NCBI RefSeq assembly: GCF_022352215.1
Contig: NZ_JAKRWF010000002.1
Location: 372,001 to 436,000 of the forward strand
Length of the DNA stretch: 64,000 nt
Source: Flavihumibacter cheonanensis
Lineage (GTDB): Bacteria; Bacteroidota; Bacteroidia; Chitinophagales; Chitinophagaceae
Direction of reading: 5' to 3'
The notes beneath the pieces were generated by a model. It was not told the DNA's origin. It saw nothing but the letters and a program-made list of their open reading frames with translations, and ran no database searches. A program made the translations under genes and the position numbers. This document shows, in pieces, positions 11,629 to 18,478 of this stretch. The first letter of the stretch is position 1. Every line of letters begins with the position of its first letter.

Positions 11629-11698
11629 ACTGCCAATTTTCCCCGCATTTATAAATATTCCTCCCCAAAACTTGCCAATTCCAATTAATTGTGTTTTG

Positions 11699-11719
11699 TT
11701 TGCGTCATAATAACGCATA
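11699..11719 (+). promoter_or_regulatory. Probable NrtR operator
   Basis: A 17-base near-palindrome at 11701-11717 (TGCGTCATAATAACGCA) ends 4 bases before the proposed GTG start of the Nudix regulator gene and follows a -7-like TAATTGTG at about 11685. NrtR-family repressors bind palindromes of about this length in front of NAD genes. Assignment to NrtR is from position and symmetry. Confidence 0.6.
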
Positions 11720-11721
11720 CA

Positions 11722-12420
11722 GTGACCGCCGCATTTTCGTCTTACCAAAATCCGTCGCTGGCCGTAGACCTGGTGGTATTTGGCTATGATAAGGAGGCCC
11801 TTTCGGTATTGCTGCTGAACCGGAAGGAAGCTCCTTTCAAAAACCAATGGACCCTGCCCGGAGCATTCCTCCAACTCGAGGAACGTTTCCTGGAAACCTG
11901 CCAGCGTATCCTGGAAACCAAACTCGGTCTCACGAATATTTACCTGGAACAACTCTACTCCTTTGATGAACCCGACCGCGATCCCCGGGGCAGGGTTATT
12001 TCCGTAGCCTATTTTGCGCTCGTCAATCCTGAAAACTACCAGCTCACTGCCGGCAAAATGGCTAATGATGTGAAATGGTTTCCGCTTGCCGACCTGCCTT
12101 CCCTCGGATTTGATCACGCCGCCATTGTCCGGAAATCAGTAGAGCGCCTGCGGGCAAAGATTTTATACCACCCCGTTGGATTTGAACTGCTCGACCAGGA
12201 CTTTACCCTGCCGGAATTGCATCATCTCTTTGAAGCTGTCCTGGATACCAAACTGGACAGAAGAAATTTCAGAAGAAAGATCCTGGACTCCCATATCATT
12301 CTTCCAACCGGACAAAAGAAAACCGGCGCACAAAACCGACATCCCGATCTCTACATTTTTAATAAAGCAATTCATCCCAATCAATTTAACCTATCCATCA
12401 CTCCCAATTCAAAAGCATGA
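11722..12420 (+). CDS. nrtR: NrtR-family Nudix transcriptional regulator of NAD metabolism
   Basis: N-terminal Nudix-fold domain (SLAVDLVVFGYDKEALSVLL, WTLPGAFLQLEE) joined to a C-terminal winged helix (FTLPELHHLFEAVL to KILDSH). The Nudix catalytic motif is degenerate: where active enzymes have REUxEE the protein reads RILETK, as expected for NrtR, which binds ADP-ribose-type ligands rather than hydrolysing them. I chose GTG 11722 because an upstream TTG at 11689 would place the operator inside the gene. The stop overlaps the next start (ATGA), so it is co-transcribed with the NAMPT gene. Likely a repressor of its own operon. Confidence 0.85.
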   Translation: MTAAFSSYQNPSLAVDLVVFGYDKEALSVLLLNRKEAPFKNQWTLPGAFLQLEERFLETCQRILETKLGLTNIYLEQLYSFDEPDRDPRGRVISVAYFALVNPENYQLTAGKMANDVKWFPLADLPSLGFDHAAIVRKSVERLRAKILYHPVGFELLDQDFTLPELHHLFEAVLDTKLDRRNFRRKILDSHIILPTGQKKTGAQNRHPDLYIFNKAIHPNQFNLSITPNSKA

Positions 12421-13898
12421 ACTACTCTCCCCTTATCCTTAAAGATGGCTACAAAGTGGGGCACAAATTTCAGTACCCTGAAGGAACTACACTGGTATAT
12501 TCCAACCTCACGCCCCGTAAATCCAGGAACAGCGAAATCCAGGAAATCGTATTCTTCGGACTTCAATATTTCATTCTGGAATACCTGGTTCGGCAGTTCA
12601 ATGATGGCTTCTTCAATCAACCCAAATCCGAAATCGTCAATAGCTACAAAAGAAGAATTGATAACTACCTGGGTAAGGATTGCATTAGCTATGATCATAT
12701 TGAAGCCCTGCATGACCTTGGTTATCTGCCGCTGGAAATCAAAGCCGTTCCTGAAGGTAGCCTGGTACCCATGCGCGTTCCGGTTTTCACGATCCGAAAC
12801 ACCCAACCTGAATTTTTCTGGCTTACCAATATGTTGGAAACCGTTATGAGTGCTGTTCTCTGGAAACCCTGCACTTCTGCAACTACTGCCTATCAATATT
12901 TAAAAACCTTTACCCGTTTCGCAGATGAAACGATTGGTGCTGACAAAGGTTTTATTCCCTGGCAAGGGCACGATTTCTCTTTCAGGGGTATGAGTGGTAT
13001 TGAAGATGCAGTACTTAGCGGAGCTGCACACCTTTTGTCTTTCTCCGGAACCGATACCATTCCTGCTATTGATTTCCTGGAAGAGTACTACGGTGCAAAC
13101 GCAGAGCAGGAGCTAATTGGTGGTTCAGTTGCAGCTACCGAACACAGTGTGATGTGTATGGGAACACAAGGTGATGAACTGGGCACGTTCCGGCGACTAA
13201 TTGAAGAGGTCTATCCAACCGGAATCGTTTCTATTGTTAGTGATACCTGGGATTTCTGGCAGGTCATCAACTCCTTTCTGCCAGCATTAAAAGAACTTAT
13301 TTTATCCCGCGAGGGTAAAGTGGTTATTCGTCCCGATAGCGGCGACCCGGTCAAAATTATTGTTGGCGATCCGGATGCACCAGCTGGCAGTCCGGCTTTC
13401 AAAGGCGCAATTGAATGTCTCTGGGAAACATTTGGTGGTACGATAACTGAAAAGGGATATCGTCTGCTCGACCCGCATATCGGTTTGATCTATGGTGATA
13501 GTATTACACCCGACCGACAAGTCAGCATACTAAATGGATTAAAGGAAAAAGGCTTTGCAAGCTACAATGTGGTGCTTGGCATCGGCTCTTTTACCTATGA
13601 ATACGTGACCCGCGACACCTTTGGTTTTGCCATGAAGGCGACGTATGGGGAAGTAAATGGTGAAGGAAGAGCCATCTTTAAAGATCCCAAAACAGATGAT
13701 GGAACTAAAAAATCAGCAAAGGGCTTACTTCAAGTGTATCGCAATGCTAGCACCGGCAAACTTGAAGTCAAAGATGAATGCTCCTGGGAAGAAGAAAAGA
13801 CCGGCGAGTTAAAAACTGTCTTTAAAGATGGAAAACTAGTGGCTCACCAATCGCTGGCTGATATCAGGAAAAAATTATTGGATCAACTGTACAACTAA
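12417..13898 (+). CDS. nadV: Nicotinamide phosphoribosyltransferase (NAMPT/NadV family)
   Basis: A 493-residue NAMPT-family enzyme, normally joining nicotinamide and PRPP to give NMN in NAD salvage. Recognisable blocks include DGYKVGHKFQYPEGT, HDFSFRGMSG, GGSVAATEHSVM, SDTWDFWQV, VVIRPDSGDP and YGDSIT. Length is normal for the family. It overlaps nrtR by 4 bases and is followed 5 bases later by a short PRPP-synthetase-like gene that probably makes its phosphoribosyl-type donor. The same gene pair forms the phage NARP1 pathway, where the NAMPT relative uses ADP-ribose pyrophosphate; which substrate applies here cannot be told from sequence alone. Confidence 0.92.
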   Translation: MNYSPLILKDGYKVGHKFQYPEGTTLVYSNLTPRKSRNSEIQEIVFFGLQYFILEYLVRQFNDGFFNQPKSEIVNSYKRRIDNYLGKDCISYDHIEALHDLGYLPLEIKAVPEGSLVPMRVPVFTIRNTQPEFFWLTNMLETVMSAVLWKPCTSATTAYQYLKTFTRFADETIGADKGFIPWQGHDFSFRGMSGIEDAVLSGAAHLLSFSGTDTIPAIDFLEEYYGANAEQELIGGSVAATEHSVMCMGTQGDELGTFRRLIEEVYPTGIVSIVSDTWDFWQVINSFLPALKELILSREGKVVIRPDSGDPVKIIVGDPDAPAGSPAFKGAIECLWETFGGTITEKGYRLLDPHIGLIYGDSITPDRQVSILNGLKEKGFASYNVVLGIGSFTYEYVTRDTFGFAMKATYGEVNGEGRAIFKDPKTDDGTKKSAKGLLQVYRNASTGKLEVKDECSWEEEKTGELKTVFKDGKLVAHQSLADIRKKLLDQLYN

Positions 13899-13903
13899 TT
13901 GTC

Positions 13904-14749
13904 ATGAATACCATCAATCTTATCTATCCGGAAAAATCATCCGTACCCTTTGAACGCATTGTTTTTCCGGATGGCCAACCTCATATAAAAATCAATCCGG
14001 TTGCCCTTGATTCCCTGGATAAAGCAGCACCTATTGCGATTTATTCGCGCATTAGCTCTGCTAATGAACTGTTGCTGGTGTTATTGATAAAAAACATCCT
14101 GGATTATCATGAATTTGAAAAGATAGAATTGCATATCAGTTACCTGCTTGCAGCCAGGATGGATCGGGTGATGACAGATGGCGAACCGTTTACATTAAAA
14201 GTAATCGCCGGTATGCTGAACACTGCCAATTTTAAGAAGATCCGGATTTTTGATCCGCATTCGGAAGTGAGCACGGCCCTGCTTAACCGATCCTATGCTG
14301 TGAACAATCACTCCTTTGTAAAAGATGCTCTGGCACATTACTGGAAAACTAATCCGGCTGAAAAACATTGTATCGTTTCTCCGGATGCCGGTGCCTTGAA
14401 AAAAATTCATTCGCTGGCTAATTACCTCGGTATCGATCAGGTAGTAGAGTGTATGAAAGAAAGAGACGTGAAAACAGGAACGCTTACCAACTTCACAACC
14501 ACCGCATCCAATCTGCAAGGTTTCTTCTGCTTTATTGTGGATGATCTCTGCGATGGAGGAGGAACTTTTATTGGTACTGCCAAACTGTTGAAATCATTGG
14601 GAGCAAACAAGGTAATTCTTGTTGTCAGCCATGGGATCTTTAGCAAGGGTCCTGTTTTGGAAGGAATTGATGCGATCTATTGTACAGACTCTTACAAGCA
14701 GATAGATAATATCAACTGTTTTCCGATCAGTAATTATTTACTGCCATAG
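13904..14749 (+). CDS. Short ribose-phosphate pyrophosphokinase-like enzyme
   Basis: A 281-residue member of the PRPP synthetase family, shorter than the usual 310-330 residues. The phosphoribosyl signature is IVDDLCDGGGTFIG (housekeeping enzymes have DTGGT). The ATP region reads AARMDRVMTDGEPF in place of YARQDRK...REP, and the DLHxxQIQGFF block is replaced by FDPHSEVSTALL. These changes resemble phage-type or dedicated Prs paralogues, not the housekeeping enzyme. As third gene of the nrtR operon it probably supplies the activated ribose donor to the NAMPT; it might pyrophosphorylate ADP-ribose instead of ribose 5-phosphate (hypothesis). Confidence 0.85.
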   Translation: MNTINLIYPEKSSVPFERIVFPDGQPHIKINPVALDSLDKAAPIAIYSRISSANELLLVLLIKNILDYHEFEKIELHISYLLAARMDRVMTDGEPFTLKVIAGMLNTANFKKIRIFDPHSEVSTALLNRSYAVNNHSFVKDALAHYWKTNPAEKHCIVSPDAGALKKIHSLANYLGIDQVVECMKERDVKTGTLTNFTTTASNLQGFFCFIVDDLCDGGGTFIGTAKLLKSLGANKVILVVSHGIFSKGPVLEGIDAIYCTDSYKQIDNINCFPISNYLLP

Positions 14750-15476: not shown

Positions 15477-15887
15477 TTACTTTTTTGCTTTTTTTAGTTC
15501 CTCTATTTCCTTTCTTAAAAAAGCAATTTCTTCGTTCTTCTCTTTATTTGCCTGCTCTAATATCTCAACAATTTTATCGACTGGATTAAATGAAGGATAA
15601 TAATTCATTGCGGAAGCAACTGCATTGTCTTTAAAATCTGTAAAAGTATTTGCAACAATGCTTATGGCAGTTTCTTCATCAAAGTTCTTTATTGCTTCAA
15701 CCGGTATCTTTAATGCTCTTGCCACTTCATCCAAAATTCCTTCTTCAATTTCATTCTTTGCCTCTAACCTGGAAATCTTCAACTGGGTCCAATCATCACC
15801 CATTATTGACGCCAGCAAATCTTGTTTCATTCCAAGCATTTGACGGAACCGGGAAATGTTTTTCCCCTGATGAATTTTCTTTTCCAT
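15477..15887 (-). CDS. XRE-family helix-turn-helix regulator
   Basis: A 136-residue DNA-binding protein. Residues about 8-65 form a Cro/CI-type helix-turn-helix (ISRFRQMLGMKQDLLASIMG, then ISRLEAKNEI). The C-terminus is a Lys/Glu-rich coiled coil (LEQANKEKNEEIAFLRKEIE) probably used for dimerisation. The type is common in Bacteroidota. It ends next to a long noncoding gap containing inverted repeats; no target can be assigned. Locally AT-rich. Confidence 0.8.
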   Translation of the reverse strand: MEKKIHQGKNISRFRQMLGMKQDLLASIMGDDWTQLKISRLEAKNEIEEGILDEVARALKIPVEAIKNFDEETAISIVANTFTDFKDNAVASAMNYYPSFNPVDKIVEILEQANKEKNEEIAFLRKEIEELKKAKK

Positions 15888-17101: not shown

Positions 17102-17340
17102 TGTTTTGGTTTTTTGTTTTGGTTGATAAAAACCAGGGAACAGCCATCCGGCTTAGCGGAGTTTGGTAATTCCTTTCTTAGGTATGAACAGTTCGCTTGC
17201 TGCTATCATCCGGCAGGTCGGATGCTTCGCAACAACTGAAGTGAACTACTGCTGAAAGGAATGACCAGCACTGCTGGCCTACACCGGATAGTTGTTTTAC
17301 CAACCAGCGGCTGTTCTCCTGATTTTTAAATGGTCATCTT
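17102..17340 (-). ncRNA. Structured leader between tRNA-like array and slipin
   Basis: No ORF is supported here. Minus-strand sequence has several hairpins, such as CATCCG/CGGATG around ACCTGC (near 17210-17225) and CCAGCA/TGCTGG near 17267. It may be part of the same RNA as the tRNA-like array or the 5' UTR of the slipin mRNA. Confidence 0.35.
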
Positions 17341-17368
17341 TTTATAGAAGCGATGGACTTCTTTTTTC

Positions 17369-17586
17369 CAACATCCGAAGTGTTGTGTTCTACCACTGAA
17401 CTATCACGATCTGAATCGTGAGCAGGATTCGAACCTGCGCAAAAGGGCTAAAGCTCTACCACTGAGCTACCGTTTGAGGGGAAGGAATCGAACCTTCGAC
17501 ACTTAGCGAAAAGGGAATGAACACCATTACAACAACAGCATACAGCGCGTTACTACGGCTGCACTGTGGGGCTCTAAATACCCTCA
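17369..17586 (-). ncRNA. tRNA-like RNA array with a circularly permuted module
   Basis: Minus-strand order: TGAGGG (17586-17581), about 83 bases, T arm GAAGG-TTCGATT-CCTTC (17497-17481), CCCTCA (17480-17475, pairs with the first hexamer), TA plus D arm GCTC-AGTGGTA-GAGC (17467-17453), a 14-base link with no anticodon stem, T arm GCAGG-TTCGAAT-CCTGC (17438-17422), TCACGAT, TCAG, ATCGTGA (perfect 7-bp stem), TA, D arm GTTC-AGTGGTA-GAAC (17401-17387), then stem-loop CAACA-CTTCGGA-TGTTG (17385-17369). The last part has all tRNA arms but with the 3' half before the 5' half. A normal folded tRNA gene cannot be drawn. Lies between DUF458 and slipin genes on their strand. Confidence 0.75.
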
Positions 17587-17635
17587 CCTGGTTTGTTTGC
17601 AACAGATGATCCCCTCTTCCCTTTGGGAACCCTAT

Positions 17636-18115
17636 TTATTGAACCAGTTTGTTGGCACAACTGGAGCTTGCGAACGCATGGGGTTTTGCACGGAATGCGA
17701 ATCCCATCCCCATGATATAACCCATCGCTTCTTTTAAAGCATCGTTGCTTTTAAATCCCGGATTGGTATTGATATCTGCATGCAATTCCATATCCACCTT
17801 GTACTTCGTGCAAACACCACATATTCTATACGCCGCATCAATGCTTTTGGATACTTCCAGTAACATTCTTTGTTTGATGCTCATCTTCCATTGCGTGCTT
17901 TCGGGCAGTATATACATAAACCCTCCTTTTCCTTTTCGGATCACAGCAATCACAGTAGCAAACTGCGTGTGTTTACCTTTTACCTGGCTATCGGTTCCGA
18001 TGCATAATTTCAATTCATGTCCCGCTGCTTGCTCACGAAGGATCATCATTCGGATCTCTTCCTCTATCGGCAGGCGGATCCGTGTTCCGTCTAATTTTCT
18101 CCATAACTGTTCCAT
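17636..18115 (-). CDS. DUF458 (YkuK-type) RNase H-like protein
   Basis: Predicted RNase H-fold nuclease family. Visible motifs are CIGTDSQVKG (first acidic residue), MELHADINTNPGFKSN and the C-terminal GFAFRAKPHAFASSSCANKLV. I place the start at 18115 (MEQLWRKLDG), giving 159 residues, because the longer frame to 18253 would run through a perfect terminator hairpin (18136-18169). The tRNA-like array follows 50 bases downstream and slipin after that, all on the minus strand, suggesting an RNA-processing or RNA-quality-control locus. Catalysis and substrate are not established. Confidence 0.8.
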   Translation of the reverse strand: MEQLWRKLDGTRIRLPIEEEIRMMILREQAAGHELKLCIGTDSQVKGKHTQFATVIAVIRKGKGGFMYILPESTQWKMSIKQRMLLEVSKSIDAAYRICGVCTKYKVDMELHADINTNPGFKSNDALKEAMGYIMGMGFAFRAKPHAFASSSCANKLVQ

Positions 18116-18135
18116 TTCATTTTGGTTTAAATCAT

Positions 18136-18169
18136 AATAAAAAACCCGGTCGTTTATCGCGACCGGGTT
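18136..18169 (-). terminator. Terminator just upstream of the DUF458 start
   Basis: Perfect 10-bp stem AACCCGGTCG/CGACCGGGTT followed on the minus strand by a T-rich run (TTTTTTATT). It ends a short upstream RNA or acts as an attenuator for DUF458. Confidence 0.8.
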
Positions 18170-18327
18170 CTCTACTCCTGTATGGATAGTATCTACTTCA
18201 TACAACAGTCTCTCCATCGGTTGCGATTTATTTCTACTGGCATGCGGAGGCAATTGCTATTCGCATCCTGCCAACTCTGCCAGCTGATAAATTTTCTATG
18301 TTGTTTCTCCCGTTTCATTTTTTTCCA
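18170..18327 (-). ncRNA. Possible short structured RNA between two terminators
   Basis: About 160 bases bounded by terminators at 18328-18358 and 18136-18169. Minus-strand sequence can form a stem CTGGCA/TGCCAG with inner ATGCG/CGCAT, giving a tRNA-arm-like shape. No separate promoter was recognised, so existence as an RNA is inference. Confidence 0.35.
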
Positions 18328-18358
18328 ATAAAAAAGCCCCGCAATCCAGGCGGGGCTT
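18328..18358 (-). terminator. Terminator after the 31-codon ORF
   Basis: Nine-base stem AAGCCCCGC/GCGGGGCTT with a 7-base loop and a T run on the minus strand. Confidence 0.82.
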
Positions 18359-18382
18359 CTATTTCAGTATTTTTATAACTTG

Positions 18383-18478
18383 TTATAAGTGTACAGCAAT
18401 ACATGCCCCGGCAACGGTACGATACTCACTTGGAGTAAATCCGTTTAGTATTTCAATATGTTGTTTCCGTGATTGCAT
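18383..18478 (-). CDS. Possible 31-residue small protein or leader peptide
   Basis: ATG at 18478 to TAA at 18383; the peptide starts MQSRKQHIEILNGFTPSEY and ends AVHL. It lies between a promoter-like box (18497-18504) and a strong terminator (18328-18358), so a transcript of about 160 bases seems designed to carry it. GFTPSEYR resembles the end of AraC-type domains, perhaps by chance. No homologue is recognised. Confidence 0.4.
   Translation of the reverse strand: MQSRKQHIEILNGFTPSEYRTVAGACIAVHL

What the first reader, a model, noticed from the sequence alone, without database searches (positions are those of the whole stretch)
17369..17586. Circularly permuted tRNA-like module and tRNA half-array
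The minus strand has T arm, 3' acceptor strand, TCAG, 5' acceptor strand, D arm and anticodon-like arm in that order, with a perfect 7-bp acceptor stem. This is a tRNA opened in the variable loop. It is fused to a second D arm/T arm pair without an anticodon and to a third T arm closed by TGAGGG/CCCTCA. Bacterial Y RNAs are known tRNA mimics with a closed acceptor end; this could be such an RNA or a new one. The anticodon-like loop is CTTCGGA (UCG at 34-36, or a UUCG tetraloop).
Basis: partly seen in the sequence, partly recalled or inferred. Interest (0 to 1): 0.85.

Follow-up and report, generated by a model that had tools for sequence, protein, structure and literature searches.

The report
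Tandem tRNA mimics beside slipin gene
Between two genes of a Bacteroidota bacterium lies a conserved structured RNA that carries two rearranged, closed copies of the tRNA shape; its relatives sit next to the same cage-type protein gene, often beside RNA-repair enzymes, which suggests that bacteria use a tRNA look-alike when they respond to broken tRNAs.

Summary
The circularly permuted tRNA fold is real and under selection. It recurs upstream of the same slipin (SPFH) gene in 78 of the 80 best-matching loci of the phylum (permissive descriptor), and its eight helices covary strongly (93.6% of cells paired against 38-48% when slid). There are two modules. M1 is opened in the anticodon loop, as in bacterial YrlA Y RNA. 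M2 is opened in the variable loop and keeps an anticodon arm. Both modules sit inside a larger structured region of about 500 nt, with covarying 5' and 3' domains and a pseudoknot. Rfam YrlA matches both modules below threshold, but the genome has no Ro60/TROVE match. Neighbours in relatives include RtcB, RlaP, PrfH, WYL, DUF458 and tRNA arrays. Best reading: the RNA partner of an SPFH protein in RNA-repair operons, a Y-RNA-like scaffold or decoy. I recall, but could not open, a 2016 paper noting an SPFH-linked tRNA-like RNA; hence new variant of a known kind.

The parts
17369..17508 (-). Tandem circularly permuted tRNA-like modules M1 and M2 (core of the finding)
   Evidence: R1 115.4 bits at 17370-17509 (row of the model); covariation
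17498..17508 (-). M1 5' strand of the anticodon-position stem (GCTAA) plus variable segment GTGTC
   Evidence: (helix 1)
17481..17497 (-). M1 T arm GAAGGTTCGATTCCTTC
   Evidence: (helix 2)
17468..17480 (-). M1 closed acceptor hairpin and spacer; short and imperfect in the window, 4-7 contiguous outer pairs in 62 of 74 loci
   Evidence: (helix 3)
17453..17467 (-). M1 D arm GCTCAGTGGTAGAGC
   Evidence: (helix 4)
17439..17452 (-). M1 3' strand of the anticodon-position stem (TTAGC) and linker to M2
   Evidence: (helix 1)
17422..17438 (-). M2 T arm GCAGGTTCGAATCCTGC
   Evidence: (helix 5)
17404..17421 (-). M2 closed acceptor hairpin TCACGAT-TCAG-ATCGTGA, 7 bp
   Evidence: (helix 6)
17387..17401 (-). 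M2 D arm GTTCAGTGGTAGAAC
   Evidence: (helix 7)
17369..17385 (-). M2 anticodon-type arm, loop CTTCGGA (TCG at 34-36)
   Evidence: (helix 8)
17346..17362 (-). Hairpin AGAAG-TCCATCG-CTTCT of the pseudoknot
   Evidence: 39 of 40 detected hairpins have loop-tail complement of 4 or more bp, shuffles at most 28 of 40
17328..17338 (-). Stretch with the pseudoknot 3' strand GATG
17128..17327 (-). 3' domain closed by AAAAATCAGG (17318-17327) with CCTGGTTTTT (17128-17137), ending 26 nt before the slipin start codon
17537..17587 (-). 5' domain hairpins P2 (17566-17587, GTGAGGG..CCCCAC) and P3 (17537-17565, AGTGCAGC..GCTGTATGCT)
17613..17631 (-). P0 hairpin at the 5' edge of the structured region, directly after the DUF458 stop codon
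16004..17101 (-). Slipin/SPFH protein, 365 aa, the constant neighbour of the RNA
   Evidence: Pfam Band_7 E 1.9e-34; 78 of 80 loci; 20 of 20 further regions
17636..18253 (-). DUF458-type RNase H-like protein (PF04308); start probably downstream of the listed TTG
   Evidence: family in 30 of 80 loci

Best explanation
The region 17128-17631 (minus strand) encodes a structured RNA of about 500 nt containing two tandem, circularly permuted tRNA mimics whose acceptor ends are closed by hairpin loops, so that without cleavage they cannot carry CCA or an amino acid. Shown here: conserved structure, placement directly upstream of one slipin subfamily, and frequent company of RtcB, RlaP, PrfH and extra tRNA genes in relatives. 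Inferred: it is co-expressed with slipin when tRNAs are damaged; it presents tRNA-like elbows (T and D loops) and an anticodon arm to tRNA-acting enzymes; and it does so bound to a slipin oligomer that takes the place Ro60 has in Y RNA particles, so that the particle gathers or protects tRNAs, nuclease and ligase during repair.
For: Fold: (93.6% paired; 38 of 42 pairs with double changes; covariation 0.628 against 0.09-0.14 slid; 0 of 500 shuffles), sequence-anchored strands: M1 82.4% against shuffle mean 49.6%, M2 83.7% against 51.2%. Larger RNA. Slipin to RNA: 78 of 80 loci and 20 of 20 further regions chosen only by slipin from the 44, 4 of them duplicates. RNA to slipin: 10 of 10 phylum hits at 98 bits or more, against 1 of 20 fetched loci at 63.2-79.4 bits (G000 and possibly other training species are among the 10). 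Repair context: RtcB family in 48 of 80 flanks, DUF458 30, WYL 14, RlaP 10, PrfH-type 8; rtcR-slipin-nucleotidyltransferase in Citrobacter. tRNA mimicry: Rfam YrlA matches; anticodon loop C32 25, U33 26, R37 27, A38 27 of 28 usable rows of 38, while 34-36 vary. No TROVE match in G000 nor in 39 of 44 slipin-bearing family genomes.
Against: No transcript, RNA-protein contact or phenotype was seen. The RNA lies on the same strand with the M1 T arm 321-708 nt before slipin (70 loci), which a cis-acting leader would also give. In the window RtcB is not adjacent (one copy about 313 kb away on the same contig, a divergent one on another contig) and the M1 acceptor is weak. RNA folding energy is unremarkable. 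The slipins match no RNA-binding family convincingly. Two of 80 loci (L099, and L100 with only 226 bases upstream) showed slipin without a closed module. TROVE and slipin do not exclude each other: 5 of 44 slipin-bearing genomes have both.
Confidence: 0.45

Rival explanations
1. Decoy or sensor for anticodon nucleases: the anticodon arms (one in M2, in some loci further hairpins after it) are bait that ribotoxins cut or bind in place of real tRNAs; closed acceptors keep the bait out of translation, and RtcB can reseal it.
For: Anticodon-type hairpins with variable anticodons of 14 amino acids follow the last module in 58 of 75 loci (that scan required U33 and R37 and may include chance hairpins); loop shape is conserved without that requirement (28 of 38 rows usable); tRNA arrays lie in many of the same loci. 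PMC7790460 (passages read) itself suggests that YrlA may act as a competitive inhibitor of an anticodon nuclease, and reports that YrlA is not cut.
Against: M1 has no anticodon loop at all; 17 of 75 loci gave no such hairpin; the conserved 5' and 3' domains and pseudoknot are not needed for a decoy.
Confidence: 0.25
2. Cis-acting leader: the RNA is the 5' leader of slipin mRNA and controls slipin expression by competing with real tRNAs for a tRNA-binding factor.
For: Same strand, with the M1 T arm 321-708 nt before slipin in 70 loci; the closing helix of the 3' domain ends just before slipin and is followed by a T-rich stretch.
Against: Much more structure than a leader needs; two tandem modules; YrlA, which the modules resemble, acts in trans with Rsr (PMC8394870, passages read).
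Confidence: 0.22
3. Permuted precursor of a working tRNA, matured by ligation as in algae and archaea.
For: Order 3' half then 5' half, and RtcB-type ligases in the neighbourhood of relatives.
Against: The two seven-base acceptor strands are at most five bases apart in 67 of 74 M1 and 45 of 58 M2, little room for two processing sites; two modules are welded in tandem into a larger conserved RNA. A minority, mostly Flavobacteriaceae M1, has loops of about 20 bases.
Confidence: 0.02
4. Decaying tRNA genes left from the tRNA arrays seen in relatives.
For: Relatives carry tRNA arrays at the locus, while the Flavihumibacter loci L031-L035 have none to two ARAGORN tRNAs.
Against: Strong covariation kept across the phylum and presence in 20 of 20 further slipin loci.
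Confidence: 0.01

Closest known systems
YrlA, bacterial Y RNA (Rfam RF02553; PDB 6CU1)
   Same: Circularly permuted tRNA mimic with T arm, closed acceptor and D arm; in M1 the RNA enters and leaves through a stem at the anticodon position; found in RtcB-type repair loci.
   Different: Scores 30-39 bits against a gathering score of 69; two tandem modules, the second with an anticodon arm; embedded in a structured region of about 500 nt; slipin instead of Ro60.
SPFH/Band-7-linked 'novel tRNA-like molecule' of RNA-repair systems (Burroughs and Aravind 2016, NAR 44:8525; content recalled from its abstract, paper not held, seen here only in reference lists of PMC7824862 and PMC6514570)
   Same: Same protein family and same operon type.
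   Different: Cannot be compared: its sequence, topology and extent could not be seen. The present RNA is probably the Bacteroidota form.
Eukaryotic vault particle (major vault protein, TEP1 with TROVE domain, vault RNA)
   Same: The slipin model has three tandem beta repeats followed by an SPFH domain, and Foldseek lists major vault protein chains from E 1e-8 over 403-453 alignment columns; an SPFH shell plus a small RNA would be the same idea.
   Different: Human stomatin ranks higher (E 3e-14); no vault family is among the Pfam matches; no particle has been seen.
trn operon and TrcR regulon of Anabaena (PMC10272220, abstract and passages read)
   Same: A tRNA operon of 26 genes, RtcB and a slipin gene belong to the genes raised in a repressor mutant or released under translational stress.
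   Different: Genes are dispersed, and no tRNA-mimic RNA is described in the passages read.

Membership tests
YrlA / bacterial Y RNA | Circularly permuted tRNA-like domain with closed acceptor | tested here: met
YrlA / bacterial Y RNA | Module closed by a stem of its own 5' and 3' strands at the anticodon position | tested here: met
   Met for M1 (helix 1); not for M2, which has a hairpin anticodon arm instead
YrlA / bacterial Y RNA | Score at or above the Rfam gathering threshold | tested here: not met
   33.1 and 30.5 bits in the window, 38.6 in L066, threshold 69
YrlA / bacterial Y RNA | Ro60/Rsr (TROVE) partner in the genome | tested here: not met
   No PF05731 match in G000, nor in 39 of 44 slipin-bearing family genomes
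YrlA / bacterial Y RNA | Discrete RNA of about 90-150 nt | tested here: inconclusive
   The conserved structure spans about 500 nt, but transcript ends are unknown
YrlA / bacterial Y RNA | Tethers polynucleotide phosphorylase | not testable with these tools
   needs RNA-protein binding data
tRNA gene | Linear cloverleaf with free acceptor end | tested here: not met
   ARAGORN finds none there; the acceptor strands form a hairpin
Permuted pre-tRNA gene | Intervening sequence with processing sites between 3' and 5' halves | tested here: not met
   Four-base loop in M2 of the window; strands at most five bases apart in 67 of 74 M1 and 45 of 58 M2
tmRNA | Match to tmRNA models with tag reading frame | tested here: not met
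   ARAGORN finds no tmRNA in the window; Rfam tmRNA fragments of 10.7 and 12.9 bits only
SPFH-linked tRNA-like RNA of 2016 | Sequence and structure as published | not testable with these tools
   Paper not held
Vault-type particle | Shell protein with tandem repeats followed by SPFH domain | tested here: inconclusive
   Fold match E 1e-8, internal repeats, 33 of 34 proteins without a 19-residue stretch above 1.6; no vault family by sequence

The most novel reading that the evidence does not exclude
A bacterial vault-like particle for RNA repair: a soluble SPFH protein with three vault-type beta repeats forms a cage that holds a large RNA made of permuted tRNA mimics, an Ro60-independent counterpart of both the Y RNA particle and the eukaryotic vault.
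Probability: 0.15. Interest if true: 0.93.

Novelty: new variant of a known kind. Interest (0 to 1): 0.72.

Why it matters
It would show that tRNA mimicry by circular permutation is not tied to Ro60 but recurs with SPFH proteins in RNA-repair operons, in a large RNA with separate domains. What looks like a simpler form lies before slipin in 1623 of 5426 complete E. coli genomes and has no annotated feature in the rows viewed, so its role in tRNA damage could be tested directly. It also offers an approach to what an SPFH cage with an RNA might do, which remains open for the vault.

Tried and rejected
Tandem decayed tRNA genes: rejected by covariation and by recurrence in loci chosen without regard to the RNA.

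Third module closed by TGAGGG/CCCTCA: rejected.

Model R1 as a census tool: all 296 phylum genomes had a match at E 0.01, because pairs of ordinary tRNA genes score up to about 79 bits; only the 10 at 98 bits or more were treated as sure, and loci with one module score lower, so the RNA is under-counted by that threshold.

Viral relatives: the slipin profile found none in viral contigs. Single-sequence folding energies were uninformative. The PADLOC library gave nothing for slipin. TROVE and slipin are not associated among 195 family genomes (5 of 44 against 11 of 151, odds ratio 1.6, p 0.36). The library with VIA-align was not available.

In one search the module table was picked by hand; 10 of 80 loci (L059, L070, L075, L078, L083, L099, L100, L106, L123, L124) are in neither list, and one M1 (L067) and one M2 (L091) fell out for want of the anchor. 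In 7 of 74 M1 and 2 of 58 M2 rows the two seven-base strands overlap, so those cells are not independent. A later R1 scan at E 1e-10 matched 8 of the 10 left-out loci, some weakly, and not L099 and L100. In one search the hairpin was found in 40 of 75 loci. Six of 40 slipin rows were left out.

Literature: ten searches listed no paper that I recognised as describing this RNA; I read passages of some of them only. The 2016 paper that most likely mentions its class is not held, so no claim of absence from print is made.

Full report
What is in the sequence. The region lies between a DUF458-type gene (PF04308) and a slipin gene (Band_7), both on the minus strand. Read 5'->3' on the minus strand it holds two units. 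M1 (17508-17447) has the order strand GCTAA, variable segment, T arm, closed acceptor hairpin, D arm, strand TTAGC, so that a stem of its own ends replaces the anticodon stem. ARAGORN finds no tRNA there and Rfam finds nothing there above threshold.

It is conserved. A search with the neighbouring DUF458 protein brought loci from related genomes; strict T-arm motifs occurred beside the eight closest copies (L001-L008, in L007 and L008 as parts of ordinary tRNA genes) and in none of the 22 other loci. A profile of seven slipins then gave the best 80 of 404 named candidate loci, all from Bacteroidota; the window's genus is Flavihumibacter, since unnamed same-genus genome G004 has a contig of the same length as F. 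fluminis. A permissive descriptor (T arm, closed acceptor hairpin of at least 3 bp, D arm) found at least one module within 900 nt upstream of slipin in 78 of 80 loci; L099 and L100 were the exceptions (L100 has only 226 bases upstream), and some of the hairpins are weak, 3 bp in L107 and in M1 of L081.

Covariation. With acceptor strands defined only by their distance from the T and D arms, 70 distinct M1 hairpins (of 74 used) are 82.4% paired against a shuffle mean of 49.6% and maximum of 57.3%, and 50 distinct M2 hairpins (of 58 used) 83.7% against 51.2% and 58.6%, in 2000 shuffles (in 7 and 2 rows the two strands overlap). On a MAFFT alignment of 38 sequences the eight helices reach 93.6% paired cells, 38 of 42 pairs with changes on both sides and a covariation score of 0.628; sliding the partners gives 38-48% and 0.09-0.14, and none of 500 shuffles reaches any of the five measures.

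Larger RNA. Downstream of M2 a hairpin with a seven-base loop forms a pseudoknot: 39 of 40 detected cases have at least four contiguous loop-tail pairs, shuffles at most 28 of 40 (hairpins were detected in 40 of 75 loci). The 5' domain (20 sequences, 32 pairs, 21 with double changes, score 0.426 against 0.05-0.13 slid) and the 3' domain (18 sequences, 27 pairs, 23 with double changes, 0.494 against 0.08-0.13) also covary; these two structures were predicted on the same alignments, which favours them. The conserved structure thus runs from about 17631 to 17128.

Link to slipin, both ways. Model R1 on 296 genomes of the phylum matched all of them because ordinary tRNA pairs also score; the ten places at 98 bits or more all have slipin in the 1.5-kb flank, against 1 of the 20 fetched loci at 63.2-79.4 bits. 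In the other direction 44 of 195 family genomes have this slipin subfamily; of 20 upstream regions that I fetched from these 44 without regard to the RNA (16 not identical to a locus seen before), all 20 have a permuted module and 18 score 76.9 bits or more.

Repair context. Families in the flanks of the 80 loci: RtcB in 48 (41 copies on the same strand within 4.5 kb downstream), DUF458 30, AAA ATPase 20, WYL regulator 14, TPR 14, radical SAM 13, RlaP 10, PrfH-type release factor 8; the names come from one representative of each family, the counts from clustering. Flanks of some loci are cut short by contig ends. ARAGORN found 2 to 20 tRNA genes in each of 16 loci that I chose. In the window's own genome one RtcB lies about 313 kb away on the same contig and a divergent one on another contig, and no tRNA array lies beside slipin. 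Outside Bacteroidota, five plasmid-collection records with full-length slipin each have a tRNA-like piece upstream: closed acceptor hairpins in the E. coli, Citrobacter and 'Subdoligranulum' records, linear tRNA-like forms in Photobacterium and Burkholderia; R1 scores there are 12 to 48 bits, so common descent is suggested but not proven. In Citrobacter the order is rtcR, gap with the RNA, slipin, nucleotidyltransferase. The 251-base E. coli upstream stretch is in 1623 of 5426 complete genomes; in the region viewed no feature is annotated there.

tRNA mimicry. Rfam's YrlA model matches both modules below its threshold. In M2 the anticodon loop keeps C32 (25), U33 (26), purine 37 (27) and A38 (27) of 28 usable rows (of 38) while the anticodon itself varies; 58 of 75 loci have such a hairpin after the last module, with anticodons of 14 amino acids, the window's reading TCG. 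The acceptor ends are closed, so aminoacylation is not possible without cleavage.

Protein partner. The slipin model (mean pLDDT 77, the last 57 residues below 50) shows three tandem five-strand repeats, also visible in sequence (scores 64-70 against shuffle maxima of 39-41), then an SPFH domain. Foldseek ranks human stomatin first (E 3e-14) and lists major vault protein from E 1e-8 over 403-453 columns. 33 of 34 proteins have no 19-residue stretch above 1.6 on the Kyte-Doolittle scale, so a soluble protein is likely. This is suggestive of a cage; nothing shows that it holds RNA.

How it most likely works. Shown: a conserved RNA of tRNA-like modules next to slipin, in repair-type loci, in a genome without a Ro60 match. 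Inferred: slipin and RNA form a particle that acts as Y RNA and Ro60 do, offering tRNA-like surfaces to enzymes that cut, mend or modify tRNAs. A decoy for anticodon nucleases and a cis-acting leader are serious rivals; the data do not separate them.

Known and new. Bacterial Y RNAs are permuted tRNA mimics (PMC11472068 and PMC8394870, passages read). I recall that Burroughs and Aravind (2016) report SPFH/Band-7 modules with a novel tRNA-like RNA; the paper is not held, so I could not check. PMC13086221 (one passage read) notes an SPFH gene inside the rtc locus of Pseudomonas. What appears new here, as far as the ten searches show, is the tandem permuted topology with statistical support, the anticodon arms, the surrounding domains and pseudoknot, and the mutual linkage to slipin.

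Noticed in passing
window 18137-18171 and 18328-18411 (-): Upstream of DUF458 two terminator-like hairpins followed by T runs and a conserved CGGGGCATGTA motif recur in near relatives; looks like a transcription attenuator. The listed TTG start of DUF458 (18253) lies upstream of one of them, so the true start is probably near 18115.
   Followed up: partly
L033:5358-6488 and L034:9670-10800: A short divergent RtcB-like protein (376 aa) lies close to slipin in two Flavihumibacter genomes but not in the window.
   Followed up: partly
L060, L063, L066, L068, L111 about 2-4.5 kb before slipin; L118 on both sides of slipin: Arrays of 11-20 tRNA genes with mostly one or two genes per amino acid lie in the same loci; their purpose is unknown.
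   Followed up: partly
L187:2780-3308: The E. coli stretch with the RNA is unannotated in the genome viewed, where a zeta toxin family gene lies beside the nucleotidyltransferase.
   Followed up: no
L102, L109, L110, L115, L116, L117, L120, L127, L128 after M2: A further anticodon-type hairpin follows that of M2, giving two anticodons in one RNA.
   Followed up: partly
window 11689-14749 (+): A protein that looks Nudix-like by eye, nicotinamide phosphoribosyltransferase and a phosphoribosyltransferase-type gene lie in a row, perhaps an NAD salvage cluster.
   Followed up: no
window 15477-15887 (-): Small protein downstream of slipin with a weak helix-turn-helix match in PADLOC (E 7.5e-5) and no Pfam match.
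   Followed up: no
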